Shown piece after piece: positions 5,671 through 22,899 of a stretch of DNA of 64,000 bases; within the stretch, counting starts at the first letter, position 1, and every line of letters starts with the position of its first letter. The stretch is from NCBI RefSeq assembly GCF_000478925.1, contig NZ_AP013072.1, forward strand, positions 1,466,501-1,530,500, in the 5' to 3' direction. The stretch comes from Streptococcus anginosus subsp. whileyi MAS624 (GTDB taxonomy: Bacteria; Bacillota; Bacilli; Lactobacillales; Streptococcaceae). The notes beneath the pieces are model-generated. The model was not told the origin of the DNA, did not search any database, and saw nothing but the letters and a program-made list of their open reading frames with translations. Position numbers and translations under genes: made by a program.

Positions 5671-7060
5671 ATTTGTAGAGCTACTTATTATAGCTTTTTA
5701 CTCACTATGTACTTTAAAAAAATCTTTTGACAAATAGCCTTTACCCGCCACCATATCATATTGAACAAGTTTCAGGTCTTCCGCAATTTGCCGCCCCTCC
5801 TCATCCAAATCTTTTTTATCAACACTTGCTTTGTGTAAAACTTCTGTTAATAAAGCATAATAAGGTGACACTTTTGAATTGGTTTGTTCTAATAATAGAG
5901 CTGTGAAGTCACTTGAATTTACAATCGGATAGTCCAATTTAGGCGTCTCATAATTACTCCACACAAAATAGTCGGTCAAATATTGGCTATCTGGATTATT
6001 TTTGAAAGCTGACTGTAGATAAAGCCCTGGTAAATGATCTCCATAAAAAACAACTGTAATTTTTTTATTTATTTTTGAAAGTTGATCAAGAAAATCCTTT
6101 GTGGCCACGTCTGTGTGGTATAATAAACGAGTATAGTTAGTTAATTGATCATTTTCATCACTAGAGAAACTATCGTTGCTTGCCTTTAATTCACTCGGTT
6201 CTTGTTCAGCCCATGGCGAATGATTTTGCATTGAAATAACAGAAAAGAATTGTCCGTTATCATTCATATTATTTAAAACAAACTGATAAGTTGATGCATC
6301 ACTTGGATGATAACCTTCATTTTCATATTTAATATTTTTAGTATCTTGTGTAATAAAATCTTTAAAACCTAATTTTTCATAAATAACATTACGTGCATAA
6401 TTTGTTGAGCTTTCTAAATGGATAGCAATTTTATTACTTTTATTATATTGATCACTAATCGAAGGAAATTTATTCATTTTTGGAACAACTTCAGTATAGA
6501 TTACAGATACACTTTGAGAGAGATTATAAAAAGGCAAACCTGTTAATGTCTGAAACTCCATATTTGCTGTTCCACCACCATAGCCATCCGATTTCATGAG
6601 ACCACTAGTTACGTTATTTTTAATTTCTTCAGTATTTGGAATCGGATTTTCACTAACAGATACACCATCTATGCGCCTAGGGTCGGCAAAACTTTCACTT
6701 AAAACATAAATTACTGTTTGCTTTTCAATAACCTCACTACGAGATTGATTCATGATATTAGTCAAAGATTTGTATTTTTTTCAATGCTTTTAATTTTTTC
6801 TTGATTATATCCTTTGGGATATTGCATATTTTGGGTTGTAAGCTGATTAAGCCAAACAAAACTTAGAGATTTAAAATGAGCATGAGTCGTATTTCCCATC
6901 CATGTAATATCTTGATTATTATTAATTTTAGATAAAATTGGAATACCATTTACAATTTTATTATCTTTTTTATTTGAGAATATTAAATGAACAAACAAGC
7001 ATACTAAAATAATCATAGTCAATGATGTTATTTGATATCTTTTTGATGAAAAAATATTTT

Positions 7061-7064
7061 GTTT
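7061..7064. repeat. target-site duplication, left copy
   Basis: GTTT directly abuts the left end of the IS and is matched by GTTT at 8123-8126. Confidence 0.75.
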
Positions 7065-7090
7065 GATAAATTGTAAAATATAGTGCAACA
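7065..7090. repeat. left terminal inverted repeat of the IS
   Basis: A 26-bp repeat, 21/26 identical to the reverse complement of 8097-8122. It overlaps coding frame 6762-7091, which explains the odd first residues of that frame. Confidence 0.8.
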
Positions 7091-7159
7091 AAAAAACTCA
7101 TAGCGTTTCATTGGTGTAAACTGTAAGTAACCACACAAACAGAATCCCGAGGAAAAACT

Positions 7160-8095
7160 ATGAGCTACTTCCATCTTACCATAACCGACCGAATAAAGAT
7201 AGAAACCTACTTGGAATTAGGTTTGAAACCTTGCCAAATTGCAAGTAAACTTGGCGTCCATAAGTCTACCATTTCAAGAGAGTTAAGACGATGCCAAAAT
7301 GGTTACTCCGCAGCCCTAGCACAGGAACAGTATGACCACAGGGCTAAGCAAAAAGGTCGGAAGTCTCGTTTGACACCAACGTTGAAAAAGGAAATTGAGG
7401 ACGGTTTAAAATCCTCCTGGTCGCCTGAACAGATTTGTGGCCGCTATCAGCTTGAACAAAGGCCGATGGTAGCTTTTAAAACAATCTATAACTGGCTCTA
7501 TGCTGGTTTGATTGCTCTGGATTTGAGTGTCCTTCGTCGTAAAGGAAAAACTCGACAACCTAAAGAAACACGTGGAAGATTTAGGATTGGCACATCGATT
7601 GCCAAACGTCCTAAAGAGGTCAGGAATCGTGAGACCTTTGGTCACTGGGAGCTCGATACTGTGGTGTCTTCCAGAGGCAAAAGCAAGGGCTGTTTAGCGA
7701 CCTTTCTGGAGCGAAAAACGCGCTTTTACTTAGCTTTCAAGATACCAGACAGAACAGCCAAATCCATGTTTTCAGCCATCGAACAACTTTATAAGCTATT
7801 TCCAAAAGAGGCTCTTAAAACCTTCACTTCAGATAGGGGAAAAGAGTTTGCCTGCTATCCTCTGGTAGAGAATTTAGGAATTTCCTTTTTCTTTGCGGAC
7901 GCCTATTCATCCTGGCAGAGAGGAAGCAATGAAAACGCCAATGGCTTACTAAGAGAATATTTTCCAAAGAAAACAGATTTAGCCGCTATCTCTGATGAGG
8001 CTTTGAACAAGGCCTTATATGATATCAATCACCGACCACGAAAATGTTTAGCTTACAGAACTGCTTGTGAAGCTCTAGTGGATGAGTACGAGTAA
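7160..8095 (+). CDS. IS30-family transposase
   Basis: A 311-residue transposase, apparently intact. Residues 5-43 form the IS30-type helix-turn-helix (LTITDRIKIET, HKSTISRELRR). The integrase-core DDE residues are visible as Asp in HWELDTVV, Asp in FTSDRGKEF and Glu in GSNENANG, followed by the HRPRKCL C-terminal signature. It begins about 70 bp inside the left inverted repeat and ends at the right one. It lies inside the gacH-like gene in opposite orientation. Confidence 0.95.
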   Translation: MSYFHLTITDRIKIETYLELGLKPCQIASKLGVHKSTISRELRRCQNGYSAALAQEQYDHRAKQKGRKSRLTPTLKKEIEDGLKSSWSPEQICGRYQLEQRPMVAFKTIYNWLYAGLIALDLSVLRRKGKTRQPKETRGRFRIGTSIAKRPKEVRNRETFGHWELDTVVSSRGKSKGCLATFLERKTRFYLAFKIPDRTAKSMFSAIEQLYKLFPKEALKTFTSDRGKEFACYPLVENLGISFFFADAYSSWQRGSNENANGLLREYFPKKTDLAAISDEALNKALYDINHRPRKCLAYRTACEALVDEYE

Positions 8096-8096
8096 A

Positions 8097-8122
8097 TGTT
8101 GCACTTATTCTTGCAATTTATC
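8097..8122. repeat. right terminal inverted repeat of the IS
   Basis: Pairs with 7065-7090. The premature TAA that ends the upstream gacH-like fragment lies inside it. Confidence 0.8.
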
Positions 8123-8126
8123 GTTT
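8123..8126. repeat. target-site duplication, right copy
   Basis: GTTT directly follows the IS right end and matches 7061-7064. Confidence 0.75.
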
Positions 8127-9224
8127 AAAAAGAAATTTTCTCAAGCCAATATAAAGACTTGCTCCTACTAATAATACAATCTCAAGATATTTTATGTTAT
8201 TTGGGCTAACAAAAGATAAAAGCACTTTGGGCGATAACAACCAAGCTAAATCACTCGGTAAAATTGGTTCACTTCGCATACGAAATTTCAAAAAATTAGC
8301 ATAAGCAAAAATTGAAAGTATAGTAACTAATAATATGCTAGCTAGTAAAAATCTATTGAGTACAAAATAAATAAATAAAGATAGTAATGCTATTGTTATA
8401 ATTTGGAAACTAGTCGAACCCGGTAACGTATAAAGTCCCCAATAATCACCAACACCCAATCCCATACTCATTTGTATAAGTACATTAAAAAACAAGCCAA
8501 AGAAAATACTAACCACAATTGATGAATAAACTGTCCCTCTATTGTTTACAATATCTTCAATACCACGAATACTCAAATATATGATAAAAAGAACAAAAAC
8601 CATAGCTAACGATGTTTCAAAAAAATAAGAAACCGTTCCAAACTGATTAAAGATTCCATCATTTGAAATAACCCAAGTTATTTTACTATCATTAATACAA
8701 AATAAAAGGAAAAATTGAGAAAGGAAAAAATTCTCATAGAGTGAATTAGTAGAAAATAAAAATGTAAGTTTATCAACATCAATTATTTTCTTGCCTCTCT
8801 TCCCTGGACTTATCATCCTATAAATAAATGTACTTAAAATAGAAATACTTAAAATTAAAAGAACTGGAAGCAAACCTTTATATTGCAGTAAATGATTTTT
8901 GTTAAAGCTCCAAATATTAAAGTTTGGATTATTAATATTCATTGATATGGTAACAAGATAAGAGAATATACAATAGATAATATGAATAAGTACTAATTTG
9001 AAATAAAATTTTTTACGAAATTTACAAAAGAATACACAAAGACCCAATATCAAAATGGAAAAATAGTATAAACTTTCAGGTAATATCCCAGAAAAAATTC
9101 TACTTTTCGAGTAATTAAACTTCCTTGATCACTTCTTATCAAACTATAATTTCCTAAAATATAAAAAAGAAAAAATATAACTGCCAAATAGATATAATCA
9201 ATTTTAATTTTTTTCATAGCACTC

Positions 9225-10988
9225 TCAATTCTTTTTATTTAGAATTCTTTTAATAATATATTTAATCGCTCTGGCTGGTCCAATAAAGATATATTTGAAG
9301 GCTCCTTTTATGCCACCCATGTATGTAAAATCCACATAAGTATGTGGTGCGCTATCGCCACGTTCATTGTATAATTTATTATCGACAAAAGGTGTTATTT
9401 CAATTTTATTTTTAGAAATTCTAAAATCATAATGTTCATTCCAGGCAACATAAACTATTAATCTTTCGATAGCATGTAAAATTGAATTTTGAGGTAATGG
9501 TTCAATAGGAACATCTTTATCTGTCAAATCTAAATCAAATAATGGTTTCAATGCATCATACTTAAACCAAATAAAAGTTCCATAACTCATAACAAAAGTA
9601 TGAAAAGTATTAAAATCAATTGGCTTAGTCATCTTCATTTTGTACCATAAATCATTCATTTCAGGAGCGATTAAGTGTTCATTCCATGCGTCTACAATTT
9701 TATTATACCTGAAAAAGGTTGGAATATCTGAAATAACAAGGCCTAGCTTATCATTTTCAAAATTAGCAAGGATATTATCAGCAGGTTTGATTAACATATC
9801 AATTAATTCGTTACGCCAAGATTCGCCTGCCCAGAAATCAGCTTCCTTAGATTTCTTTGTATGAAAATGTCCAATATAATCATAAGTTGACAGATATTTT
9901 TTCAATTTCAACATTGGTAAAACATCACGACCAATGTTACCTGTCACAAAAATATGAGCATTTTTATGATTCTGATTTAAAATTGCTTCAATTTCTAATT
10001 TCTTAGTATCATTATCAGTTGTAATGAATAAATCATAAGCAAAATGGAAGTTTTCAAATGCTTTTAGGAAATCTTCTAACAAATCAACATAAAAGACATG
10101 CAGATGCACTCCAATTTTCTTGTTTGACAAAGAAGTAGGTGCCGTTGTCTGAATATATTTGCGTGCTAAAAGGTACTTAAAATCAGGGAAATTAATTTCA
10201 GACATATGTGAAACAATCAAATCCACTGGATAATCTGACTTTTTAGCAATTTCTTCCAAGAGATAGGGGGCTATGTGCTGATTATTATCAATCGCTTTAA
10301 CCTTTATGAAAGGAACCTTGTGATTTAAAATAGCCGTTGGATTATAGTAAGAAAAGTCAGGATGAAGCATGCCTGTTGTATCTTCATTAACTGTATCAAA
10401 GACCGTCTGGTAGCGGAAACCAGCAGCCAAAAAGGTCGTTGTTACCTTGGTTTCATAATCATTGATAACTTCTTGGACATCTGTATGATTTTTCACATTT
10501 TCCCAAAAATTTCTAAAAGCCGAAGATGCAATAACCGGCTTTTTAAAAGTAATAAAGTAACTTTGGATATGCTCAGGAAAGCCCTGCGTCTGACGAGATT
10601 TTTTTGTCCTACGATTATTGGTCAAGCCCCAGAAATCAACTTGGTCGTTAGCTTCATAATTGAGATAATAATCTTTAATATCCCAAAGAGGACCAAAACA
10701 AGTATCATTCATGATAGTAACAACATCATAGGTTGTAATATCATCAAAGCCGACATGAGTCATGCCATCACGCCAAGCTGCAAAATCAAACCCGACATTT
10801 TCACGTTGAATAAAATTATCCATCAAATGTAAATCAACTAATTTCTGATAATCATGCTCGCTAACTTGGCTATTTGAGATAAAAACAACCTTTGAAAACA
10901 GTGGTCGCATCTGTGTCAGTTGATAATAAACATGCGAACTCACACGATTATATTTATTAAAATGCACGTATAAAAGCAGACGCTTCAT
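9225..10988 (-). CDS. rgpF: RgpF rhamnan biosynthesis glycosyltransferase
   Basis: A 587-residue protein of the RgpF family (GacG/SccG equivalent), a cytoplasmic rhamnosyltransferase that extends the polyrhamnose backbone on its lipid carrier. The N-terminal half has the conserved FISNSQVSE and RENVGFDFAAWRDG blocks. The second half has the GNIGRDVLPML and GHFHTKKS motifs. Its ATG overlaps the end of the preceding rgpE-like gene by 4 bp (ATGA), which indicates translational coupling. The broken gacH-like gene starts 7 bp after its stop. No damage is seen in rgpF itself. Confidence 0.95.
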   Translation of the reverse strand: MKRLLLYVHFNKYNRVSSHVYYQLTQMRPLFSKVVFISNSQVSEHDYQKLVDLHLMDNFIQRENVGFDFAAWRDGMTHVGFDDITTYDVVTIMNDTCFGPLWDIKDYYLNYEANDQVDFWGLTNNRRTKKSRQTQGFPEHIQSYFITFKKPVIASSAFRNFWENVKNHTDVQEVINDYETKVTTTFLAAGFRYQTVFDTVNEDTTGMLHPDFSYYNPTAILNHKVPFIKVKAIDNNQHIAPYLLEEIAKKSDYPVDLIVSHMSEINFPDFKYLLARKYIQTTAPTSLSNKKIGVHLHVFYVDLLEDFLKAFENFHFAYDLFITTDNDTKKLEIEAILNQNHKNAHIFVTGNIGRDVLPMLKLKKYLSTYDYIGHFHTKKSKEADFWAGESWRNELIDMLIKPADNILANFENDKLGLVISDIPTFFRYNKIVDAWNEHLIAPEMNDLWYKMKMTKPIDFNTFHTFVMSYGTFIWFKYDALKPLFDLDLTDKDVPIEPLPQNSILHAIERLIVYVAWNEHYDFRISKNKIEITPFVDNKLYNERGDSAPHTYVDFTYMGGIKGAFKYIFIGPARAIKYIIKRILNKKN

Positions 10989-12382
10989 TTTCTTCTCCTA
11001 AAAAAGTTGATAATTTTTGTTGGAATCATCCAACGACGTGAATGGATAACCGAATCATAGCGAACAACCATTTCTTCCAGAGCTTGCTTGTAGTGCAGAC
11101 GCTCTTGGCTAGCTATTTCAAACTGAACTTTATAAGAACTAAGTTCTTTTAGTTCTTGCGATACTTTAAAAAGATCCTTAGCTAGGAGTTTTGCCACAAA
11201 GTCATTTGAAGTGATATTATCTACATTAAACATTGAATAGTTTAATGTAAAATCTTTCTTTTCAATTTTCGAAATATCATAAATCAATTGTGGATCCGGA
11301 TGATTGAAAAAGACGTAATCACCAACTAACTTACCATTAGTTAAACTTGGAAAGATTTCTGTTTGATAATCATTAACAACCAAGGAAACACGTTTATAAA
11401 AGCTTTCAATTTCAGAAAGATCAATTCGCAGCCGCACTGTATCTTCTGGCAAATCAAATGAAAAACTATCCTGATACTTCATAGGGATTTTCAGCACTCG
11501 CTCTTGACTAAAATCTTCATCATCACATGCAAAATAAATCGTCACAAACTGCTTATCAATCTGTGATATCAGATTACTTTTTTGAGACAATGCAATTTCA
11601 AAACGATTATCTTGTTTAAGTAATAGCTCAAGCGCACGCTGGTAGTCACAAGGATATTTTTTTAAATATTCCAACTGTGTTTGCAATAAACGCTCAAAAC
11701 GCTGTTGAAGTTTAGCATCATTCTGAGTGCGCGAATCCGACTCTGGATCCATTCGATAGACCGTGGTCGAGTCTGGCAAAAAACTCAATGTAGTTCGTCG
11801 AAATAATTCTAGTTGGATGTTAAAAGTATCGTCCGCAGTGTTAACATCAATGAGGTCATTAACTTCTCGCATCAGCTCAGTATCAACCAGCCAAGTTGAA
11901 GCCATGGTCATTCCCTTCAAGACAAGCATCTCTTCGTAAGAAGTCAATAGTGGAATAACTTGGTTTTTAAAGACATCTGCCTGTGTTGTTCTACCAAAGG
12001 AATCCACCATATCAAACTCTGTATTAGACCATTTAGAATTTGGTGTAGTTTCCAACAAGTCAACCTGTTTTTGTAACTTCTCATCGTCTATCCAGTAATC
12101 ATCCCCATCACAACGGGCAATATACTGACCGCGAGCTTCCTTACAAATAGCAACCCAAGTTTTGGCAATCCCTTGATTTTCAGAATTGAAAAAAGTACGA
12201 ATTTTATCAGGATAGCACTGCCCATAATTGCGGATAATATCAACTGACTCATCTGTAGAACAATCGTCAACCAGAATAATTTCAAATTCAAAATTGGTTT
12301 TTTGGCGCAAAAAACTATCAATAGCATCTGCTATCCACTTTCCCTTATTGTAATTTGTACAAATAACAGATACTTTTGGCAT
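10985..12382 (-). CDS. rgpE: RgpE-type GT2 glycosyltransferase
   Basis: A 465-residue GT-A fold family 2 glycosyltransferase. The N-terminus MPKVSVICTNYNKGKWI, the DDCSTDES motif and the metal-binding DGDDYW are typical. The last residues are basic and contain SRRWMIPTKI, a common ending of Rgp/Wbb-type enzymes. In the rgp order rgpA-B-C-D-E-F the fifth gene encodes this type (SccF/GacF). In S. mutans RgpE is linked to the glucose side chain, but sugar and linkage cannot be read here. It starts 17 bp after rgpD and overlaps rgpF by 4 bp. The symbol rests mainly on position and family. Confidence 0.8.
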   Translation of the reverse strand: MPKVSVICTNYNKGKWIADAIDSFLRQKTNFEFEIILVDDCSTDESVDIIRNYGQCYPDKIRTFFNSENQGIAKTWVAICKEARGQYIARCDGDDYWIDDEKLQKQVDLLETTPNSKWSNTEFDMVDSFGRTTQADVFKNQVIPLLTSYEEMLVLKGMTMASTWLVDTELMREVNDLIDVNTADDTFNIQLELFRRTTLSFLPDSTTVYRMDPESDSRTQNDAKLQQRFERLLQTQLEYLKKYPCDYQRALELLLKQDNRFEIALSQKSNLISQIDKQFVTIYFACDDEDFSQERVLKIPMKYQDSFSFDLPEDTVRLRIDLSEIESFYKRVSLVVNDYQTEIFPSLTNGKLVGDYVFFNHPDPQLIYDISKIEKKDFTLNYSMFNVDNITSNDFVAKLLAKDLFKVSQELKELSSYKVQFEIASQERLHYKQALEEMVVRYDSVIHSRRWMIPTKIINFFRRRK

Positions 12383-12399
12383 GCTTATATCCTCAACTT

Positions 12400-13611
12400 T
12401 TAATCATTAAAGATCCAATTTCCATTTCGCTGAATTAAACCACTAGCAGAATCCAAGGCAGATTTGTCATCTGGCGCAATATCATCACGGTTAATCCAAA
12501 TAATCGGTGTCTGTATACTATCAGCAAAACCAAGCATTTGTCCTGCTTTATCACGCACAGTAACCTCTAATTTCATTTTCAAATTATTAACATTTGGCAA
12601 CGAACACTCATAAGTTACTTGCTTATGACCTGTTCCCGATGTTGGCAAATCCATTGAATTATCGTTATAAATCCAAATATTGCGGTCAATATCCGTCAAA
12701 GACAAAGCAATATAAGTTGGAATATCTTCAAGGACATCATAAGAAATTGTAAAAGATACCTTTTCGTTAGGCGTTATACGAGTAGGAGAATGAAGACTAA
12801 CACTAACATTTTCAACTTGGATAACTTCATCCTTGATATTCTCGACTTCATCTTTTTCAATAATTTGCTCAGTATTGTCATAACTATATTGATTAGCAAC
12901 ATTAAACGGTTCTCCGTAAGCCTTTATTAAACCATCCTCAATCAACACAGCTTTATTACAATATTTCTTAACTGCACCCATATCATGAGTGACCAGAATG
13001 GTCGTCTTGCCTGATTTTTTGCGTTCCATGAAGTAATCATTACACTTGCGTTGGAAAGCTTCATCACCCACTGCCAAGACCTCATCCAAAATCAGGACAT
13101 CACCTTGTGCCTTGATAGCAACAGAAAAAGCTAAGCGGACCTGCATACCGCTGGAGTAGTTTTTTAATTTTTGGTTCATGAATTCTTCGAGTTCTGCAAA
13201 TTCAACAATACCGTCATACATATTATCAATTTCATTAGTACTAAAACCAAGAAGTGCACCATTCATATAAACATTTTCACGTCCAGTTAATTCTGGGTTA
13301 AAGCCGACACCAAGTTCAATAAAGGAAACCATTTTCCCGTTTACCGTGACTTTGCCCTTTTCAGGAACATAAATCTGAGAAATAATTTTCAAAAGTGTTG
13401 ATTTCCCAGAACCGTTACGACCAACAATCCCAAAGAAGTCACCTTCTTCAACTTCAAAGTTGATATCTTTTAAAACATGCTGCTCTTTATACCCCTTAAT
13501 GCCCCTGAAGCGATTCACTAAGGTTGTACGAAGACTATTGGTCGCTTCTGTAGGTAGTTTAAAATATTTGCTAACATGATCAACTTTTACTGCAATTTTT
13601 TTATCTGACAT
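12400..13611 (-). CDS. rgpD: rhamnan ABC exporter ATPase RgpD
   Basis: A 403-residue ABC ATPase of the polysaccharide/teichoic acid export class (Wzt/TagH). The nucleotide-binding domain carries Walker A GRNGSGKST, the signature YSSGMQVRLA and Walker B VLILDEVLAVGDE. The region after about residue 260 is a beta-rich extension like the carbohydrate-binding domain of Wzt, which may check the finished chain end. With RgpC it moves lipid-linked rhamnan across the membrane. Its start codon shares a base with the rgpC stop (ATGA-type overlap). Confidence 0.95.
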   Translation of the reverse strand: MSDKKIAVKVDHVSKYFKLPTEATNSLRTTLVNRFRGIKGYKEQHVLKDINFEVEEGDFFGIVGRNGSGKSTLLKIISQIYVPEKGKVTVNGKMVSFIELGVGFNPELTGRENVYMNGALLGFSTNEIDNMYDGIVEFAELEEFMNQKLKNYSSGMQVRLAFSVAIKAQGDVLILDEVLAVGDEAFQRKCNDYFMERKKSGKTTILVTHDMGAVKKYCNKAVLIEDGLIKAYGEPFNVANQYSYDNTEQIIEKDEVENIKDEVIQVENVSVSLHSPTRITPNEKVSFTISYDVLEDIPTYIALSLTDIDRNIWIYNDNSMDLPTSGTGHKQVTYECSLPNVNNLKMKLEVTVRDKAGQMLGFADSIQTPIIWINRDDIAPDDKSALDSASGLIQRNGNWIFND

Positions 13612-14417
13612 TATAAAATCTCCGCAAATTTTTTAGCATTTTTATTAAATATCAAAAAGCCAACTATAAAGATAAGAAATGGCAATAAATATGGAATAGC
13701 TACAATAAACTTATTATTTATCATTTGCCAAATAGGAGTGTTTGCCTTATCAATCAGGAAATAACGCATATCCTGAATAATTTGAGCTAATGGATTCATC
13801 ATGACAAGCTTTGCAGCCGTAGGATTTTTATCTGCAATAAAACTAATTGGATAAATAATGGGGGTTGCATATAATCCAGCTTGTAACATGACTTCCCAAA
13901 TTTGAGATAAATCACGAAAACGAACAAAAAGAGTCGCTAAGATAAAGGCTAAACCACTTGCAATGAGAAATAATTCTACAAATAATGGAAGAAGCCATAA
14001 AGCAGAAATGGTAAAGCGAACCCCATTAGCAAGCGCAAAAATCAAAACAACTATAAGGTTAATTGAAAAATTGATAGCTGCGCCTGCTACCGCTGAAATG
14101 ACAACAATATGTTTAGAAAAGTTCAGCTTACGAAGTAAATCTCCACGGGTAACAATTGAAACCATGCCCATTGAAGTCGCTTCTGAAAAAAAAGACCAGA
14201 TAACATTAGCTAAAAGAAGAGCTACTGCAAAATGAGGTACATTCCCACCTAAACGAAGAAATCTAATAAAAACAAAATACATAATTGTAAACATTAGAAG
14301 GGGCTTCAAAATGGACCATAAATGCCCAATCAAGCTTCCTTGATACCGTAATTTAAAATCTGTTTTAATCATCTCGCGTAAGAGAATCATATTTTTTCGA
14401 CTAAATAAGTCCATCAT
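13611..14417 (-). CDS. rgpC: rhamnan ABC exporter permease RgpC
   Basis: A 268-residue ABC-2 type permease with about six membrane segments, of the Wzm/TagG family. LKLRYQGSLIGHLWSILKPL-like residues near the N-terminus are the conserved amphipathic entry helix of this family. It partners RgpD. Both ends overlap neighbouring genes by about one base, so rgpB-C-D are translationally coupled. Confidence 0.95.
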   Translation of the reverse strand: MMDLFSRKNMILLREMIKTDFKLRYQGSLIGHLWSILKPLLMFTIMYFVFIRFLRLGGNVPHFAVALLLANVIWSFFSEATSMGMVSIVTRGDLLRKLNFSKHIVVISAVAGAAINFSINLIVVLIFALANGVRFTISALWLLPLFVELFLIASGLAFILATLFVRFRDLSQIWEVMLQAGLYATPIIYPISFIADKNPTAAKLVMMNPLAQIIQDMRYFLIDKANTPIWQMINNKFIVAIPYLLPFLIFIVGFLIFNKNAKKFAEIL

Positions 14418-15352
14418 TACTCCTTATAAGCAAATTTTGTAAGAATGAGTGTTGTAAAGACAAAAGTGTGGAAGGCACGATTTTTTCGATAACCATATTT
14501 TTGAAGACGGCGCAAACGCTCCATAAAAGGGACTTCCATGATTGTCACAAAATTTTCAATCAGTTCTTTATTTTGAGCAGTCAGAGGCAAGGCTAATAAA
14601 TTCCTTGCTTGTTCTTGGCTGTCTTGAATCAATTTCCAATACTTGGCAAAAAGAATATGCGGGCGAATCCAATTTTGCATTCTTTTTCTGAGGGTTCTTG
14701 CACCTAAAACATTATTGGAATGTTGCCGATATAATTCACTTGGTTGGTCTATATAGACTAAATGACCAAAAGCTGCTGCCAACAAAGCCAAATACCAGTC
14801 ATGCATGAGAAGATCATGAGCTTCTTGGCCTGTCCATAAGTCAGCCAGAGCTTGGTTAATCATCGAAACACCGCCTGTAACAGTATTTTCTGTTAATTCT
14901 TGGAGCAGTTCCGTGTTTGCATGGTCAGACTGTGTACGAATCATACTTTCATGTACGACATTTAACTCTTGATCTACAACTTTTAAATCCGTGTAAACCA
15001 GCAAAGGCTGACTGGTATCGTGTTTAATCGCTTCTTCTAGCTGCATTTCTACTTTTTCAGGCAGCCAGACATCATCCTGGTCGCTAAAAAAGTAAACATC
15101 TGATGTTTGATATTTCAAAAGATAAAAGAAACTTTTGATAACACCAAGATTTTCGACGCTATCAGGATTCACAAACTGAATGCGATTATCTTTTTGACAA
15201 AAATCTTGAATAATCTCACGCGTCCTGTCTTTAGAACCATCATCTCGGATTAACAGTTGCCAGCCTGTATAGGTCTGCTGCCGAATACTTTCAATCTGTT
15301 CTGCTAAAAACCGTTCACCATTGTAGGTGGACATGAGAATGGTCACTTTCAT
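14417..15352 (-). CDS. rgpB: RgpB rhamnosyltransferase (GT2)
   Basis: A 311-residue GT2 enzyme. MKVTILMSTYNGERFLAEQI and IRDDGSKDRT form the nucleotide-sugar site, and FFSDQDDVWLPEK holds the DxD metal motif. This matches RgpB/SccC/GacC, which adds rhamnose early in backbone synthesis. It overlaps rgpA by 4 bp and rgpC by 1 bp. Confidence 0.93.
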   Translation of the reverse strand: MKVTILMSTYNGERFLAEQIESIRQQTYTGWQLLIRDDGSKDRTREIIQDFCQKDNRIQFVNPDSVENLGVIKSFFYLLKYQTSDVYFFSDQDDVWLPEKVEMQLEEAIKHDTSQPLLVYTDLKVVDQELNVVHESMIRTQSDHANTELLQELTENTVTGGVSMINQALADLWTGQEAHDLLMHDWYLALLAAAFGHLVYIDQPSELYRQHSNNVLGARTLRKRMQNWIRPHILFAKYWKLIQDSQEQARNLLALPLTAQNKELIENFVTIMEVPFMERLRRLQKYGYRKNRAFHTFVFTTLILTKFAYKE

Positions 15353-16497
15353 GATAAAAATAATTCCTCGTATTCACCCACAATTTTTTCCCAAGTGTAG
15401 TGTTCTTTCATGTTTTCTTTCGCAGCTTGACCTAGATTTGAAAAGTCAGACTGTTTATCCACCTGATGAAGGAGATCAACTAGGCTATCTTCTTTCTTAT
15501 CCCAGTAAAAGGCTGTTTTTTTTGCCACTTGTCGGTTAAAGTCAACACCCAACACTAAATTCAAATCTGTTTGAGCTAGCGCCTCCAGCAGTCCAGGATT
15601 GGTGCCGCCGACCTCATGACCATGAATATAAGCAAACGCTTGATTGCGAATATACTTCAATAATTCTTGATCATAAACAGTACCGACAAACTTAATCCGC
15701 TCATCTTGGTCAAAATTTGTTTGTTGTCGTAGTTCTTCAAAATAAGCATTGCCTTGATGATTGCAGACAATCAGCAAGTCTCGTTGCGTCTGTGACTTCA
15801 TAAACTCACGAATGATGATTTCATAGTTATTTTCTGGAACAAAACGCCCAACAATCAAATAATAATCTTTTTCTTTACTTGCCCATGTGTCAAAAAAGTG
15901 TCGGACTTTTTCATCCTGAACAGTTAAAGACGACAAGCGCAAATCGGTTCCATAGGCAATAAAAGTGGTTTTAGCCCACGGATAAGCTTTCTGGATATAG
16001 CTTTCAATTCCTTGATTGTCCGAAATCACCAAATCGGCATGCTTGGTCATCACTTTCTCAGAATATTTGAGGTACTTTTGAACGAGCTTAGACCACTTAG
16101 CGCGTTTCCACTCAAGTCCATCAGGATTGATATAAAAGAGACCACCAGCATGGTGAATTTTTCGAGCAAAAGGTGCGATAAAAGCTCCGATTGTATTTCC
16201 TAGGATATAGAAAATAGGACGCTCAATCTGTTGTTGCTTGACTAATGTAAGTGCGTAGTTGATTGCCATCATATCATAAGCAATAACACGAGCTGGACCA
16301 AGTTTTGGTGCTTTAATCGTAAAACAGTCTACGCCTTTGTAATCAAAATGATGATAAGCTTCATCATCTGATAAACAAGCTACATGGTATTGGATTTGAG
16401 GAGATATGTGGTTCTCCACTAATTTCTCAACAAAGGTTTCAAATCCACCATATTTAGCAGGAAGGCCACGACTTCCGATGATGAATACATGTTTCAT
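15349..16497 (-). CDS. rgpA: RgpA rhamnosyltransferase (DUF1972/GT4)
   Basis: A 382-residue GT4-type enzyme beginning MKHVFIIGSRGLPAKYGGFE, the signature of the DUF1972 domain. The C-terminal part holds GTNPGLLEAL, the acidic donor-binding region. GacB/SccB/RgpA enzymes transfer the first rhamnose onto GlcNAc-diphospho-undecaprenol. The reading frame extends 9 codons upstream, but GAGGG 5 bp before the ATG at 16497 decides the start. It is the first gene of the rgpA-F operon, with an extended -10 box about 40 bp upstream and the rmlD terminator beyond that. Confidence 0.94.
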   Translation of the reverse strand: MKHVFIIGSRGLPAKYGGFETFVEKLVENHISPQIQYHVACLSDDEAYHHFDYKGVDCFTIKAPKLGPARVIAYDMMAINYALTLVKQQQIERPIFYILGNTIGAFIAPFARKIHHAGGLFYINPDGLEWKRAKWSKLVQKYLKYSEKVMTKHADLVISDNQGIESYIQKAYPWAKTTFIAYGTDLRLSSLTVQDEKVRHFFDTWASKEKDYYLIVGRFVPENNYEIIIREFMKSQTQRDLLIVCNHQGNAYFEELRQQTNFDQDERIKFVGTVYDQELLKYIRNQAFAYIHGHEVGGTNPGLLEALAQTDLNLVLGVDFNRQVAKKTAFYWDKKEDSLVDLLHQVDKQSDFSNLGQAAKENMKEHYTWEKIVGEYEELFLS

Positions 16498-16532
16498 GAT
16501 TTCCCTCAATTCAAGATTTTGCAATCTAATCT

Positions 16533-16541
16533 ATTATATCA
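16533..16541 (-). promoter_or_regulatory. extended -10 promoter of rgpA
   Basis: TGATATAAT on the minus strand. TTACAC 18 bp upstream is a weak -35. It lies between the rmlD terminator and rgpA, so the backbone genes have their own promoter. Confidence 0.65.
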
Positions 16542-16565
16542 CTTTATAAATCGTTTGTGTAACAT

Positions 16566-16596
16566 AAAATAGAAAAGCAACCTTTCGGCTGCTTCT
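16566..16596 (-). terminator. terminator of rmlD
   Basis: Stem AGCAGCC/GGTTGCT around a GAAA tetraloop on the minus strand, followed by TTTCTATTTT. It begins a few bases after the rmlD stop. Confidence 0.8.
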
Positions 16597-16599
16597 ACC

Positions 16600-17451
16600 T
16601 TATTTCTTTCCTTGTTTATAAAATTCTTTGAGGGCATCTTGCCAAGTTGGGATGACAAAGCCGGTTGCCTTAGCTTTAGCTAGGCTCATGGTAGAATTGA
16701 GCGGTCGCTTCGCTTTCGCTGGAAACTTACTAGAGTCTACTGGCAAAACTTCAACATCTGTATCTTTTAAGATTTCCACTGCAAAGTCATACCAAGTCGT
16801 ATCTTCTGTGGCATCATTTGACAGATGATAATAGCCAAATTCTTTTTGATTTTCTGCTAAGTACGTCATAAATTCAGCCAACGTACGTGTCCAAGTTGGA
16901 CGACCGTGTTGGTCATTCACAACAGTCAAAGTTTTATGTGTTTTCGCTAAATTCTGCATAGTGAAAACAAAGTTCTTTCCATAATTTCCAAAGACCCAAG
17001 CTGTGCGGATAATGTAGAAACGGCTAGAATATTTCTCAACCAATTCCTCTCCCATGCGCTTCGTGCGACCATATTCTGTCTGAGGGTCTGGTTGATCATC
17101 TACTTCCCATTCCTGCCCAACTGGCTTATCTCCAGCAAAAACATAGTCTGTAGAAATGTAAACTAGTGTTGCACCATGCTTTTCTGCTGCTTTAGCAACA
17201 TTTTCAGTTCCTGTGACATTGATTGCATAATCCAGTTCTTTTCCTTCATCTTCTGCTGCGTCCACAGCTGTATAGGCAGCACAGTGGTAGACAAGACTTG
17301 GCTTCACTTCTGCAAAAACCTTCTCTACCATTTCAGCATTTGTAATATCCATTTCTGCTACATCAACTGCCACATACTCTTCATTGCGTTCATCTAAAAG
17401 ATAACGAAGTTCTGTCCCAAGCTGTCCGTTAGCCCCTGTAATTAAAATCAT
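16600..17451 (-). CDS. rmlD: dTDP-4-dehydrorhamnose reductase
   Basis: A 283-residue short-chain dehydrogenase/reductase that performs the last step of dTDP-L-rhamnose synthesis. The N-terminal Rossmann motif GANGQLG, the STDYVFAG block and the YGRTK motif (catalytic Tyr and Lys) are visible. It lies apart from rmlACB, with its own promoter and terminators on both sides, directly upstream of rgpA. The GAS equivalent gacA is also the first gene of the rhamnan cluster. Confidence 0.96.
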   Translation of the reverse strand: MILITGANGQLGTELRYLLDERNEEYVAVDVAEMDITNAEMVEKVFAEVKPSLVYHCAAYTAVDAAEDEGKELDYAINVTGTENVAKAAEKHGATLVYISTDYVFAGDKPVGQEWEVDDQPDPQTEYGRTKRMGEELVEKYSSRFYIIRTAWVFGNYGKNFVFTMQNLAKTHKTLTVVNDQHGRPTWTRTLAEFMTYLAENQKEFGYYHLSNDATEDTTWYDFAVEILKDTDVEVLPVDSSKFPAKAKRPLNSTMSLAKAKATGFVIPTWQDALKEFYKQGKK

Positions 17452-17490
17452 TTGAAATTCCTTTCTGAATAATAAACATTCAATAAATTC

Positions 17491-17499
17491 ATTATATCA
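17491..17499 (-). promoter_or_regulatory. extended -10 promoter of rmlD
   Basis: TGATATAAT on the minus strand, about 40 bp before the rmlD ATG, immediately after the upstream terminator T-run. There is no clear -35. Confidence 0.6.
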
Positions 17500-17522
17500 A
17501 AAAAAGCAGAAAAAATCTGCTT
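17500..17522 (-). terminator. terminator after the GtrB-like gene
   Basis: Stem AAGCAGA/TCTGCTT (7 bp) with a T/A-rich loop, followed by a run of T on the minus strand, right after the stop at 17524. Confidence 0.8.
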
Positions 17523-17523
17523 T

Positions 17524-18450
17524 CTACTCGCTCTTCTCTTTAACCACGTAAATTGGTCTTTTTTTGGTTTCCATGAAAATTTTTCCAATGTATTTACCAA
17601 GAATGCCAATTGTCAACAACTGAAAACCACCTAGAAAAAGAATAATCGACACCATAGAAGGCCAGCCAGCTGTAGGATCCCCAAAAATCAAGGTACGAAT
17701 AATGACAATCATGATAAGGAAAAATGCCAATAAGCAGGCAACAATACCTCCCCAAAAAGCTATTGTCAAAGGAGCATCTGAAAAGTTGATAATCCCTTCT
17801 AAAGAATAATTCAATAATTGCCAGAAACTCCAACTGGTTTTTCCTGCAACTCGTTCCACATTTTTATATTCCAAATATTCTGTTTTAAACCCAACCCATG
17901 CAAATATCCCTTTAGAAAAACGATTGTACTCAGAAACTTCTAAAATAGCATCTACCATTTGTCGGCGCATGAGACGGAAATCACGCGCACCATCTACCAT
18001 TTCTACCTGACTAATTTTGTTAATCAGTTTATAAAAAAGATTGGCAAAAAAACTACGAATAGGTGACTCCCCATCACGCGTTGTCCGTCGTGTCCCTACA
18101 CAATCCAAGTCTGGATTCTTCTCCAGCATGAATTTCATTGTGAGTAAAAGTTCCGGAGGATCTTGCAAATCCGCATCCATGACAGTCACTAAATCACCAG
18201 TTGCATGTTTGAGACCCGCATACAGAGCTGCTTCTTTTCCAAAATTTCTCGAAAAAGAAAGATAATGAACACTTTTATCTACTTGATTTAAGTCGCGTAG
18301 AATTTGTAAAGTCCTATCTTTTGAGCCGTCATTGACAAAGATGTATTCAAAATGATCATTTATCTGAAATTTTATTTTTTCCATTTCCGCATAAAACAAC
18401 GGAAGCGACTCTTCCTCGTTAAAACAAGGAACGATGATTGAAATTGTCAT
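17524..18450 (-). CDS. GtrB/SccN-type polyprenyl-phosphate glycosyltransferase
   Basis: A 308-residue GT2 enzyme. The catalytic domain (MTISIIVPCFNEEESL, VNDGSKDRT, VMDADLQDPPE) is followed by two C-terminal membrane helices (about 230-290) and a basic tail. This is the architecture of GtrB/YfdH proteins that charge undecaprenyl phosphate with glucose or a related sugar on the inner face. In S. mutans SccN plays this part for the glucose side chain. It stands alone with its own promoter and terminator, between the GT-C gene and rmlD. It differs from the GacI-like enzyme further upstream, which lacks membrane helices. Confidence 0.85.
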   Translation of the reverse strand: MTISIIVPCFNEEESLPLFYAEMEKIKFQINDHFEYIFVNDGSKDRTLQILRDLNQVDKSVHYLSFSRNFGKEAALYAGLKHATGDLVTVMDADLQDPPELLLTMKFMLEKNPDLDCVGTRRTTRDGESPIRSFFANLFYKLINKISQVEMVDGARDFRLMRRQMVDAILEVSEYNRFSKGIFAWVGFKTEYLEYKNVERVAGKTSWSFWQLLNYSLEGIINFSDAPLTIAFWGGIVACLLAFFLIMIVIIRTLIFGDPTAGWPSMVSIILFLGGFQLLTIGILGKYIGKIFMETKKRPIYVVKEKSE

Positions 18451-18636: not shown

Positions 18637-20142
18637 TCAAAGATAATATTGAATGATCGTCGTTAGCAGACTCACCATTATGAATAATGTTGCTACAAAG
18701 AACAAAAAATTTTCAACCTTTTCTTTTTGGTATTCTTTTATGGAGAGATTGTTATCTTGAATCATTAGCTGAGCAGAAACATTGACAGCCAATGCAAGTA
18801 AGACAAAGACACCTGAAAAGTACCTTCCTTGTATTCCTTTGATAGACATATCCGTTATTTCTCCCCACATTAAATAGGCAGTCATGAGAATGCCAAAGAT
18901 AATGCCCAATGCAACTAACCAGACACCCAATTTACTAATTTTTTTCATTTTAGGCGCTTTAGGAGAAATTAAAATCACAATACTAATGAAAACTAAATAG
19001 AACCAAATAAAAGATTTGACATCATATGCAAGCCAACCAAAAGTAAAGAGAGACTGAAGTTTAAAAGGAATAAAGTTTACACCCTCTTTTACCATCATTC
19101 GAATAAACTCAGGCATATTTTCAATCGTATACTTAATTTTTTCTATTGGATTTACATGAATAACATTTAAGTTTAGTCCACTTGTTATTTTTAACCACAG
19201 TAAACTATAAAAGGCAGCAATTCCTATTAATAAGACTGTAGTTAAGTACTTCTTCTGAGACATCTTCTCTTTAGGGATGAATAAAAGCAAACCAATTAAT
19301 AATACATACGGTAATTTAGATAAGGCTATTAATACAGATAAGCAGAAATAGATCAGTAAATCTTTATAATCAACCTTCTTCTTATCCAAAAAGGAATAAA
19401 ATATACCAATTGCCAAAAATATAAGGCCATTGGCCATTGCATCTTGGTTAAAGGAGGCTGCAATATAAATATTGATCGGTACAATTGCTAAAATACCAAA
19501 GATTTGTTGACGTGGACCGGATTTCTTAATAGCAAATCTACATAGGAGAGCAAAAGTTAATAGGTTAAAAAATCTACCTAGTAAAATTGAGGCAAAAATA
19601 CTTAAATGAAATACCTTTGCTATTAATATCCCCAAGGTTTGTGGCAAATAACTTACAAAAGAATATCCATTTGTATTAGCTAAATTATTATACTGAACTT
19701 TTTTAGAAGACACTTCTTTTCTCCCTAGATCAGTATTCGCCAAAGGTTTTTTAAAAACCGTCTCAACATCGGAGATGTCTGATGAGACTAATAATTCTTG
19801 TTTATTACTCGGTAAATAGAGATGACCTTCACTGATATATAAGGCTCTTGAATAATGAAAGTTTTCATCTGGTGAATCCATTACAGGAGTATAAAAACAA
19901 AAGAAGGTCCCTGTCAGCATGATAATAGAAAAAACCTTATTATACACTTTTCCTTTTAGGAATAAAAGAGCACTTAAGGAAATACCCAACAGTAGAAAAG
20001 TTCTCTTCGGAAGAACCTCCAAATGGCCATCAAAGTATACATAAGTTACAATCAATGTTACCCAAATAGCAATTAAATAATATTTCTTTTCATATAATTC
20101 TTTAAGAAAAGAATGTGAAAATTTAGATAATCTTTTTTCCAT
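18637..20142 (-). CDS. GacL-like GT-C glycosyltransferase (DUF2142)
   Basis: A 501-residue polytopic membrane protein with about 11-12 hydrophobic segments. The first extracellular loop holds DSPDENFHYSRA, the acidic DE motif typical of DUF2142/GT-C enzymes that use polyprenyl-phosphate sugars outside the membrane. Gene order (GT2, DUF2304, flippase, GT-C) matches gacI-J-K-L of group A streptococci, where GacL attaches the side-chain sugar to rhamnan. It starts 6 bp after the GT4 gene. Which sugar it transfers is unknown. Confidence 0.75.
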   Translation of the reverse strand: MEKRLSKFSHSFLKELYEKKYYLIAIWVTLIVTYVYFDGHLEVLPKRTFLLLGISLSALLFLKGKVYNKVFSIIMLTGTFFCFYTPVMDSPDENFHYSRALYISEGHLYLPSNKQELLVSSDISDVETVFKKPLANTDLGRKEVSSKKVQYNNLANTNGYSFVSYLPQTLGILIAKVFHLSIFASILLGRFFNLLTFALLCRFAIKKSGPRQQIFGILAIVPINIYIAASFNQDAMANGLIFLAIGIFYSFLDKKKVDYKDLLIYFCLSVLIALSKLPYVLLIGLLLFIPKEKMSQKKYLTTVLLIGIAAFYSLLWLKITSGLNLNVIHVNPIEKIKYTIENMPEFIRMMVKEGVNFIPFKLQSLFTFGWLAYDVKSFIWFYLVFISIVILISPKAPKMKKISKLGVWLVALGIIFGILMTAYLMWGEITDMSIKGIQGRYFSGVFVLLALAVNVSAQLMIQDNNLSIKEYQKEKVENFLFFVATLFIMVSLLTTIIQYYL

Positions 20143-20148
20143 CGTTTT

Positions 20149-21294
20149 CTACTTTTCCTTGTCTAGTTCTTCAAACAGACGATACCATTGATTTAAAATT
20201 TTATCCTCTGAATAAGAATCGATAATATGTTCCCTTCCCTTCAGGGCAAGTCCTTCTAATAGATGAGGATTTTGCAAATAAAATTTCATTTTATCAGCTA
20301 ACTCTTCAACAGAATTGTTTACTAGTAATTCTGGAGTAGCAGATTGAATCTCCTCAACACCTTGACTACAATTATAGGTTATTGCCGGAGTTCCAGCTAT
20401 AATAGATTCTACAACAGACATTGGAAAAGCTTCAGATTTTGACGTTAATAGAGTAAAGTATGACTTTTTATAAACTTCTAAAACTTTACTTGTTCGCCCT
20501 TTCAGTTTAACAAACTCTTCTAGAGAAAGTGAATTGATTAAAGCTTCTAACTTTTGTCTCTCACTCCCCTCGCCGTAGATTTCCAAAGTGACATCAGGAA
20601 AACATTGTTGAATTTTAGAAAAAGCTAAAATAATATGATCAATTTGCTTAACTGGATCCAATCGTCCAACAAATGAAATGGTAGATTTATCAAAGATGTC
20701 TTCGATATTAGAAATGTTGATATAACGAGGCAACGGATTAGCAATTGCTTCCATTTTTTTAAAAGGTATATGATAGGCTTCACTAATTTTTTTAGAATAA
20801 TCGCTTGATAGAAAAAGTATTTTATCTAATTTAGGATATTTGTGTTTAATAATATAAGGATAAATAGAGTAAAGACCCTTTGAGTCAAAAACAAAATCAG
20901 CTGAACTATGCATTTGGCCAATAAAAATAGCTTGATTCGAGTAAGATTTTATCACTTTTTCCATCAATAAATAAACACTTGGATTTGCAAGAATAACAAT
21001 AGGATCTTTAGCCCTATCTAAGACTTGAATCAAATTCTTTTCTAATTTTTTATTAATAAATTTTTCCTGGAAAAAGATCCAAGGTTTTTGAAAGAAGATG
21101 TCTTGAGAATATAACAATACTTCTTCATAATTTTTTGATGTTTTCTGATAACTTTCACCTGCTTGAACACCACAACCAAATACAGTTACTCTATTTCCGT
21201 CAGTTGCAAAACTTTCAGCCAGTTGATCTACAACTCTTTGTACACCTCCAAGTCCTCCAAGATGGTGCGTTACAAAAATAATATCTCTATTCAT
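20149..21294 (-). CDS. GT4 glycosyltransferase in the side-chain module
   Basis: A 381-residue GT-B family 4 glycosyltransferase. The N-terminus contains THHLGGLGGVQRVVDQL (acceptor-side glycine loop). Motifs SFVGRLDPVKQID and SEAFPMSVVESI (E-x7-E) mark the donor domain. It overlaps the flippase gene by 8 bp and is coupled to it. The standard gacI-L set has no such gene, so this is an extra transferase specific to this polysaccharide, perhaps building a longer lipid-linked side chain in the cytoplasm. Substrates are not predictable. Confidence 0.8.
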   Translation of the reverse strand: MNRDIIFVTHHLGGLGGVQRVVDQLAESFATDGNRVTVFGCGVQAGESYQKTSKNYEEVLLYSQDIFFQKPWIFFQEKFINKKLEKNLIQVLDRAKDPIVILANPSVYLLMEKVIKSYSNQAIFIGQMHSSADFVFDSKGLYSIYPYIIKHKYPKLDKILFLSSDYSKKISEAYHIPFKKMEAIANPLPRYINISNIEDIFDKSTISFVGRLDPVKQIDHIILAFSKIQQCFPDVTLEIYGEGSERQKLEALINSLSLEEFVKLKGRTSKVLEVYKKSYFTLLTSKSEAFPMSVVESIIAGTPAITYNCSQGVEEIQSATPELLVNNSVEELADKMKFYLQNPHLLEGLALKGREHIIDSYSEDKILNQWYRLFEELDKEK

Positions 21295-22567
21295 TTTTCA
21301 TTCTCTTTCTATGTATAGCAAATAGATACATTAACCCGTTCCCAATAACATAAGTAAACATCACAATAAAAAAACTAATTGTTGCACCAAGCATACCTTT
21401 TTGATAAATAAATGGCTCTGTGACCAATTTTGTGATAATTAACAAAATGATATATAAACCTACCAGTAGATGTTGTTTCCGAATAATGGTTAGAATATTT
21501 TCAAAAACAATGGCTAAGGCATATAAAACTCCTGCAAAGATTAGAATTGCAAAAGGAAGGGTATATTGTGATAATGCCACTCCAAATACCAAACTAAGAA
21601 TTGGGGTGCCTACGAAGTAAGCTACCACCGTAATGACTATCCCACCTATAAATAAATAGAACAAGAGCTTTTTTACAATTAGAGAAAATTCAGCATACTT
21701 CTCTTGATTCCACAAAATAGCCATTTGGGTTATTAGGGGTCTAACCATTAAAATGATGAGACTCATAAAAAAAACAGGCATAAAAAGAATGTTAAAATCA
21801 CGTTGCATGCCAGTCTGCAAAACTCCTTGATTTAGGCCTTTTTCAATAATAATCTTAGGCTCGTTTAAAATATATAATAAAATAAATCCATTCACAAATA
21901 ATGGCCAACAAGCCAAAAAAATATCTTTTATATCTTTTTTGTAATTGCTAGAGAAGAGTTCTTTCCATTGAATCGTTTCAAAATATTTAAGAAAACTGGT
22001 TTCATAAAAAATGATAACTAAGCCATTCCAAATGACTAAAGAAAATAAACCTACAATCACAGACTTCGAAAGCAAAATACTAAGAAACAGGACAACTACA
22101 CTAGTGGAATAACGGTAAAACATTGTTTTCCCAGCTATATCCATACGTTCTCTTTGTTGAAATAAGCCTTGAAATAAATCAGATACCGCATCCCACATAC
22201 GATACAAAATCATTAAAAATGTCAGTAAAATCGTTTCAAAAGAATAACGGCCTTCTCCGACAATATATAAATAGGGATACAATGTGACCAACATCGCTAA
22301 AATTGTTATCAACCTAGTTTGAAAATATCCTATGAAAGAATGCTTTTGATTCACATCCGTTCCTTGATAATTTCTGACTTGGAAAAGTCCGATAACAATC
22401 CAAAGAGTCCCAATGGAATTCGCCAAGCTAAATTGGTCTGCTACTTTGGCAGAAGTTAATCTTGTTACAATCAGTAGATAAAGGACAGAAACTCCTGAAG
22501 CTGCTAAATTCCCCAGTAAATTCCAAAAATAAATCTCTTTAGCAGAAGGATTAGTTTTTATTTTCAT
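21287..22567 (-). CDS. GacK/Wzx-like polysaccharide flippase
   Basis: A 426-residue membrane protein with about 12 predicted helices of the MOP/Wzx type (polysaccharide biosynthesis transporter). Its start overlaps the DUF2304 gene by 17 bp and its end overlaps the GT4 gene by 8 bp. By analogy with GacK it should flip a lipid-linked sugar or short oligosaccharide to the outer face for use by the GT-C enzyme. Assignment rests on hydrophobic pattern and gene order. Confidence 0.78.
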   Translation of the reverse strand: MKIKTNPSAKEIYFWNLLGNLAASGVSVLYLLIVTRLTSAKVADQFSLANSIGTLWIVIGLFQVRNYQGTDVNQKHSFIGYFQTRLITILAMLVTLYPYLYIVGEGRYSFETILLTFLMILYRMWDAVSDLFQGLFQQRERMDIAGKTMFYRYSTSVVVLFLSILLSKSVIVGLFSLVIWNGLVIIFYETSFLKYFETIQWKELFSSNYKKDIKDIFLACWPLFVNGFILLYILNEPKIIIEKGLNQGVLQTGMQRDFNILFMPVFFMSLIILMVRPLITQMAILWNQEKYAEFSLIVKKLLFYLFIGGIVITVVAYFVGTPILSLVFGVALSQYTLPFAILIFAGVLYALAIVFENILTIIRKQHLLVGLYIILLIITKLVTEPFIYQKGMLGATISFFIVMFTYVIGNGLMYLFAIHRKRMKNE

Positions 22568-22892
22568 CTTTCTCCCTCAGTGCGATTGTTTGAACTAAAT
22601 TTTTAAATTTCGTATCTAATTTAGATAATCTAAGAGTAAGTTGGAATTGATTGATGAGCAATAAGAAAATGACAAATAAAAAGATAAAATTGACTGCTGA
22701 TACAATTCCTAATGCACTTGCGATAGCTTCTGCTAGACCTGGGAAAATGCTAAATACTAATAGAATTAAAGAGAAAAACACCCAAAATATAGCGTCGTTG
22801 ATTTGAACTTGTGATTTTCGAATGCTACGTAAAATAAAGGCACAAGTCATAATAGAGACAAAAATCAATACAATTTGAAACCAAATAGTCAT
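22551..22892 (-). CDS. GacJ-like DUF2304 membrane protein
   Basis: A 113-residue protein with three hydrophobic helices and a charged C-terminal helix (RLSKLDTKFKNLVQTIALREKDE), typical of DUF2304. In GAS the equivalent GacJ, of nearly the same size, binds GacI, brings it to the membrane and raises its activity. Here it directly follows the GacI-like gene (7 bp gap), which supports the same partnership. Confidence 0.82.
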   Translation of the reverse strand: MTIWFQIVLIFVSIMTCAFILRSIRKSQVQINDAIFWVFFSLILLVFSIFPGLAEAIASALGIVSAVNFIFLFVIFLLLINQFQLTLRLSKLDTKFKNLVQTIALREKDENKN

Positions 22893-22899
22893 TTAATGT

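What the first reader, a model, noticed from the sequence alone, without database searches (positions are those of the whole stretch)
5698..9217. A gacH/sccH-type gene broken three times, yet exactly reconstructible
Removing the IS and one GTTT copy rejoins the reading frame at FKQNIF. Restoring one base near 9105-9145 and one A in the A7 run at 6775-6781 gives 2,460 bp, or 819 residues, which is GacH size. Three independent lesions suggest relaxed or negative selection on glycerol-phosphate decoration of the rhamnan, while all upstream rgp genes stay intact. In GAS, GacH affects zinc tolerance and sensitivity to human group IIA phospholipase A2, so the surface phenotype could differ here.
Basis: partly seen in the sequence, partly recalled or inferred. 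Interest (0 to 1): 0.7.

Follow-up and report, generated by a model that had tools for sequence, protein, structure and literature searches.

The report
Thrice-broken gacH in Streptococcus anginosus relative
A bacterium close to Streptococcus anginosus carries a gacH gene cut by two frame breaks and one jumping gene, so its wall sugar would likely lack the glycerol phosphate that this gene's enzyme is predicted to add; natural gacH losses are already known in group A streptococcus.

Summary
Window 5698-9217 (minus strand) is a GacH/SccH-type glycerol-phosphate (GroP) transferase gene in four pieces: two frame breaks, each in an A/T homopolymer tract (9092-9097 and 6775-6781), and a 1058-bp IS30-family element (7065-8122) with a 4-bp target duplication. 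General sequencing noise is unlikely: of 194 sister ORFs matched in 400 kb, 188 are intact and one other is frame-split; of 95 coding A/T tracts of 7 or more, 3 changed length, two of them in gacH (Fisher p 0.01). Stand-alone C-terminal proteins with the same internal start exist in public data, so the 6775-6781 break is probably older and shared. The upstream rhamnan genes are open and no second GacH was found. Best reading: an inactive allele under relaxed constraint, predicted to lack GroP; the substitution evidence for relaxation is weak. Inactive gacH alleles are already described in S. pyogenes, so this is a new member of a known kind. Adaptive loss and phase variation are not excluded.

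The parts
5698..9217 (-). remnant of a gacH/sccH-type GroP-transferase gene, in four pieces
   Evidence: tblastn of the sister ORF: four segments in three frames, together covering all 819 residues
9098..9217 (-). N piece: start codon and first membrane helix; reads to a stop after 55 residues
9092..9097 (-). frame break 1, in a homopolymer tract whose length differs from the sister's
8127..9091 (-). M piece: most of the membrane domain
7065..8122 (+). IS30-family insertion element, 1058 bp; ten near-identical copies in the genome counting this one; terminal inverted repeats 20 of 25 bases alike
7160..8095 (+). transposase ORF, 311 aa (HTH_38, rve)
7061..7064 (.). target duplication GTTT, left copy
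8123..8126 (.). target duplication GTTT, right copy
6782..7064 (-). M2 piece: last membrane helix and linker
6775..6781 (-). frame break 2, in a homopolymer tract whose length differs from the sister's
5698..6765 (-). C piece: extracellular LtaS-type (PF00884) catalytic domain, without membrane anchor
9225..10988 (-). rgpF (rhamnan synthesis protein F), intact, directly upstream
10985..18450 (-). open backbone genes: glycosyltransferases, ABC transporter pair, rmlD, PgfS-like GT2; each aligns over its full length with the sister's DNA
18637..23595 (-). side-chain cassette: DUF2142 501 aa, GT4 381 aa, flippase-size 426 aa, DUF2304 113 aa, GT2 231 aa; the first three differ from the sister's

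Best explanation
It is a gacH/sccH gene broken by two homopolymer frame breaks and one IS30-family insertion, and the cell therefore likely makes no working GroP transferase and would leave its rhamnan side chains without glycerol phosphate. Shown: the breaks, the uninterrupted gene in the nearest relative, the identity of the catalytic domain, open neighbouring genes, and no second GacH-like gene in the searches made. Inferred: the membrane piece carries no catalytic domain, and the catalytic piece has no anchor or export signal, so neither would work alone. Inferred order: the 6775-6781 break is likely old and shared with other strains, and the IS is likely recent because its copies are near-identical. 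Inferred cause: once inactive, the 28% G+C gene with its long A/T tracts collected further breaks without being purged.
For: GacH identity: PF00884 164 bits, solved GacH domain E 3e-115, place after rgpF. Breaks and IS boundaries. Uninterrupted sister gene and empty site. Low background of breaks: 188 of 194 matched sister ORFs intact, 2 frame-split. Tracts: 3 of 95 coding tracts changed length, 2 of them in gacH; 8 of about 48 non-coding tracts changed against 1 of 89 coding tracts outside gacH, so gacH's tracts behave like unconstrained DNA. No second copy: one gacH match and two sulfatase-domain proteins in the genome, the other in a 746-aa frame. Natural null alleles lose GroP in S. pyogenes (PMC12282279). 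IS: ten copies printed as 100%. Stand-alone C pieces P0050 (91 members) and P0058 (8), both starting MNQSRSEV; P0050 shares with the window a leucine where the sister and six other sequences aligned have proline.
Against: No reads were available, and PMC12282279 reports a poly(A) break in gacI that Sanger sequencing did not confirm, so either tract break could be an assembly error; the IS alone still splits the gene. dN/dS is 0.134 over all pieces and 0.08 in the C piece, like the open neighbours, so any decay is recent and relaxation is not shown by substitutions (5 of 6 assigned changes on the window's side, p 0.22). P0058 lacks the shared leucine. S. suis carries GroP without a gacH in its cluster (PMC13015895), so another enzyme could add it here.
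Confidence: 0.8

Rival explanations
1. Phase variation: the A/T tracts switch gacH on and off by slippage, and the IS has since locked it off in this strain.
For: Both frame breaks sit in A/T tracts of 7 or 8 in the sister; other database proteins start at the same internal site.
Against: Tracts of 7 or more are not in excess over synonymous-codon shuffles (6 observed, 8.6 expected in the sister; no excess in the five other gacH genes tested). With the IS present, slippage alone could not switch this copy on.
Confidence: 0.08
2. Adaptive loss: losing GroP is favoured, for instance by host cationic enzymes such as hGIIA or by phages that use wall polysaccharide.
For: Different truncated forms occur in public proteins (P0050/P0058, P0161); no gacH match is found in 30 of 153 rgpF-bearing species genomes, and 5 of 142 gacH-bearing ones, the window's included, have it in short or stop-bearing frames; natural S. 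pyogenes nulls resist hGIIA.
Against: No test here separates this from drift; the excess of changes on the window's side is not significant (p 0.22); strain counts of broken and intact forms could not be resolved. The phage idea is from general knowledge of rhamnan receptors and was not tested.
Confidence: 0.15
3. A side-chain swap made GacH useless: the side-chain cassette differs from the sister's and the acceptor sugar may have changed.
For: Window DUF2142 and GT4 genes have no DNA match in the 400 kb of the sister compared, and the flippase-size gene only a short one; the sister has a different DUF2142 protein and a GT2 at that place.
Against: G242 carries the window-type DUF2142 at 89% and a gacH without stops over the 749 of 819 positions covered; leaving out the window's genome, 36 of 40 genomes with a related DUF2142 also have a gacH match.
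Confidence: 0.12
4. Both frame breaks are assembly errors, and only the IS is real.
For: Both lie in homopolymers; a similar poly(A) false call is on record for gacI.
Against: Only 1 of 89 other coding A/T tracts differs in length from the sister; proteins starting just after the second break exist independently.
Confidence: 0.1

Closest known systems
Naturally inactivated gacH alleles in S. pyogenes (PMC12282279: premature stops in 12 of 2021 genomes; abstract and passages seen)
   Same: same gene family; a natural loss-of-function allele in a genome that carries the rhamnan cluster
   Different: other species group; frame breaks plus an IS rather than a single premature stop; no functional test here
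SccH of S. mutans (PMC11754754; passages seen)
   Same: GroP transferase of the rhamnan cluster; SccN makes the lipid donor for the acceptor side chain; deletion causes aggregation and division defects
   Different: working enzyme there, broken gene here
GacH extracellular domain, PDB 5u9z, 5wcx, 6dgm
   Same: window C piece aligns over residues 5-352
   Different: the window piece is cut off from its membrane domain
S. uberis rhamnose-rich polysaccharide cluster with a GroP transferase (PMC12235971; passages seen)
   Same: cluster with a GroP-transferase gene and variable side-chain genes
   Different: there the transferase gene is reported present in genotypes 1-4 (97.5% of strains)

Membership tests
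GacH/SccH GroP transferase | LtaS-type (PF00884) extracellular domain, homologous to solved GacH | tested here: met
GacH/SccH GroP transferase | N-terminal multi-helix membrane domain | tested here: met
   present as N, M and M2 pieces; 12 hydrophobic windows, two pairs of them overlapping, in the sister protein by a simple hydropathy scan
GacH/SccH GroP transferase | one uninterrupted chain of about 820 residues | tested here: not met
   split into four pieces; met in the sister
GacH/SccH GroP transferase | encoded in a rhamnan cluster | tested here: met
   directly after rgpF
GacH/SccH GroP transferase | transfers glycerol phosphate to side chains | not testable with these tools
   bench assay needed
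IS30 insertion element | helix-turn-helix plus DDE (rve) transposase | tested here: met
   95% DNA match to a plasmid copy annotated IS30 family
IS30 insertion element | terminal inverted repeats and short target duplication | tested here: met
   20 of 25 terminal bases alike; 4-bp duplications at this copy and the four others that could be read
Phase-variable contingency gene | excess of long simple tracts over chance | tested here: not met
Phase-variable contingency gene | tract length varies within a population | not testable with these tools
   no reads or strain set

The most novel reading that the evidence does not exclude
GroP decoration is being lost repeatedly in S. anginosus: different strains carry different broken gacH alleles on an otherwise complete rhamnan cluster, because an uncharged wall polysaccharide is an advantage in its niche.
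Probability: 0.15. Interest if true: 0.6.

Novelty: new member of a known kind. Interest (0 to 1): 0.3.

Why it matters
GroP gives streptococcal wall rhamnans a negative charge and, in the species studied, affects hGIIA killing, zinc tolerance and cell division (passages of PMC12282279, PMC11754754 and PMC13015895). A natural broken gene next to a close relative with an uninterrupted one and similar backbone genes would let the role of GroP be compared outside S. pyogenes and S. mutans using natural isolates only; their side-chain cassettes differ, so a better-matched pair should be sought.

Tried and rejected
Phase-variation locus: tracts not enriched. Side-chain swap as cause: the nearest cassette relative has a gacH without stops over the part seen. 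IS insertions in gacH of G242, G024 and G022, suspected from contig ends inside the gene: no IS was seen at the ends printed; in G242 the two contig ends share 18 bases, which points to an assembly break; for G024 and G022 this is only my reading. A gap pair near 5766-5773 in the DNA alignment was not treated as a lesion: the frame stays open there, with one conservative residue difference from the sister (sister position 798). Rfam scan of 1-30000: nothing at gathering score.

Mended after rechecking: a first count put 7 of 8 amino-acid changes in the membrane part on the window's side (p 0.07), but it leaned on P0001, which is 99% identical to the sister and so not an independent witness. 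Judged by the more distant proteins it is 5 window, 1 sister, 2 unassigned (5 of 6, p 0.22); in the C part I read 2 window-only, 3 sister and 4 unassigned of 9.

Rows set aside: 115 of 309 sister ORFs had no match at 85% or more and were not counted in the intact/broken ratio; among the 194 counted, 2 were partial, 1 near full and 1 had an in-frame stop. G038 and G153 have frames of 703 and 706 aa with unmatched N-termini and were not resolved.

Literature searches: among the rows listed (11, 20, 10, 15 and 8, some of them the top of longer lists), no title or abstract start is about gacH loss in S. anginosus; the library holds open-licence papers only.

Full report
Where it is. The window is part of a 2.12-Mb single-contig genome. 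The source is therefore S. anginosus or a very near relative. Strains of S. anginosus are reported to bear Lancefield group F, C, G or A antigen, or none (PMC9643698; passages).

What is broken. On the minus strand, 5698-9217 holds pieces of one gene. Comparing the 819-aa ORF of G004 with the window gives four segments in three frames that together cover all 819 residues. Frame break 1 is at 9092-9097 and frame break 2 at 6775-6781, each in an A/T tract whose length differs from that in G004. An element of 1058 bp (7065-8122) lies between the M and M2 pieces, flanked by GTTT; G004 has the empty site. Its transposase has HTH_38 and rve domains, it matches a plasmid copy annotated IS30 family at 95%, and the genome holds ten copies printed as 100% identical. 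could read the ends of five of the ten; all five sit between 4-bp repeats.

What the gene was. The C piece has the PF00884 domain (164 bits) and matches the solved GacH extracellular domain at E about 3e-115. The gene follows rgpF. The genome-wide searches found one gacH match at E 1e-40 and two PF00884 proteins, the second in a 746-aa frame, so no second GacH is apparent. Side-chain genes of 231, 113, 426 and 501 aa have nearly the sizes listed for gacI, J, K and L in PMC12282279; that correspondence is by size and order only. The backbone genes from rgpF to the 308-aa GT2 align with the sister over their full length; for the GT4 and flippase-size genes only an open frame was seen.

Is it noise? 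Of 309 G004 ORFs of 150 aa or more in 400 kb, 194 have a match of at least 85% in the corresponding 404 kb: 188 intact, 1 near full, 2 frame-split (gacH and one other), 1 with an in-frame stop, 2 partial. In the reverse direction, of 314 window-side ORFs 195 had a match: 188 intact, 2 near full, 2 with in-frame stops, 3 partial, none frame-split. Of 95 coding A/T tracts of 7 or more in 250 kb of aligned DNA, 3 differ in length, 2 of the 6 in gacH and 1 of the other 89 (Fisher p 0.0098). Of about 48 non-coding tracts 8 differ (against 1 of 89, p 0.001). Tract lengths thus do vary where nothing holds them, and gacH's tracts look like that class. Raw reads were not available.

Age and selection. 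Between the window and G004, the N, M and M2 pieces together show 6 synonymous and 8 non-synonymous differences, and the C piece 23 and 8; over all pieces dN/dS is 0.134, in the C piece 0.08, against 0.141 for rgpF and 0.015 to 0.229 for the other backbone genes from the 465-aa glycosyltransferase to the 308-aa GT2. By this measure the gene does not stand out, so decay, if real, is recent. The unequal dS (0.025 in M, 0.127 in C) suggests recombination, which limits dating. In the membrane part 5 of 8 amino-acid differences fall on the window's side, 1 on the sister's and 2 are unassigned, my reading; 5 of 6 gives p 0.22, not significant. Among public proteins, the intact form is cluster P0001 (207 members); stand-alone C pieces with the same internal start are P0050 (91 members) and P0058 (8). 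P0050 has the window's leucine at sister position 714, where the sister and six other sequences aligned have proline; P0058 has threonine. An N-terminal form of 296 aa, P0161 (16 members), shares two window residues (at sister positions 47 and 115) but ends differently. Member sequences could not be read one by one, and some may be contig-end fragments; one search scored only the 7,995 candidates sharing most words.

How general. 142 of 284 genus genomes have a gacH match, 153 an rgpF match, 123 both, 30 rgpF only and 19 gacH only, at E 1e-40. Short or stop-bearing frames were seen in 5 of the 142: the window's genome, G151, G085, G016 and G075; G075 has a transposase-like insertion of about 1.2 kb. 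The other 137 lie in frames of 662 aa or more; four of those I looked at meet a contig end inside the gene (G022, G024, G189, G242), and G038 and G153 have unmatched N-termini.

Function. In S. pyogenes, natural gacH nulls lose GroP, resist hGIIA and become sensitive to zinc (PMC12282279; abstract and passages). In S. mutans, sccH deletion causes aggregation and division defects (PMC11754754; passages). A similar outcome is predicted here and untested. S. suis carries GroP without gacH in its cluster (PMC13015895; passages), so another enzyme cannot be ruled out.

Verdict. The explanation is most likely ordinary gene decay, with adaptive loss possible. It is a new example of a known kind.

Noticed in passing
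window 18637-22567: Side-chain genes (DUF2142, GT4, flippase-size) differ from the 96-97% identical relative G004; the DUF2142 is 89% identical to one in G242, suggesting exchange of surface-sugar genes.
   Followed up: partly
window 9225-10988 against G056: RgpF is 99% identical to G004 but 43% to the genome matching S. anginosus J4206, although ccpA-pepQ is 95% identical: the rhamnan cluster has probably been swapped between near relatives.
   Followed up: no
L046:7616-8836: gacH of G075 is split by an insertion of about 1.2 kb with a transposase-like ORF.
   Followed up: partly
about 7.3-8.3 kb past the window end (relative coordinates 71330-72341): The only other frame-split ORF in the 400 kb compared (sister ORF 340 aa).
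   Followed up: no
L043, L044, L045: gacH in G085, G151 and G016 is also split or shortened.
   Followed up: partly
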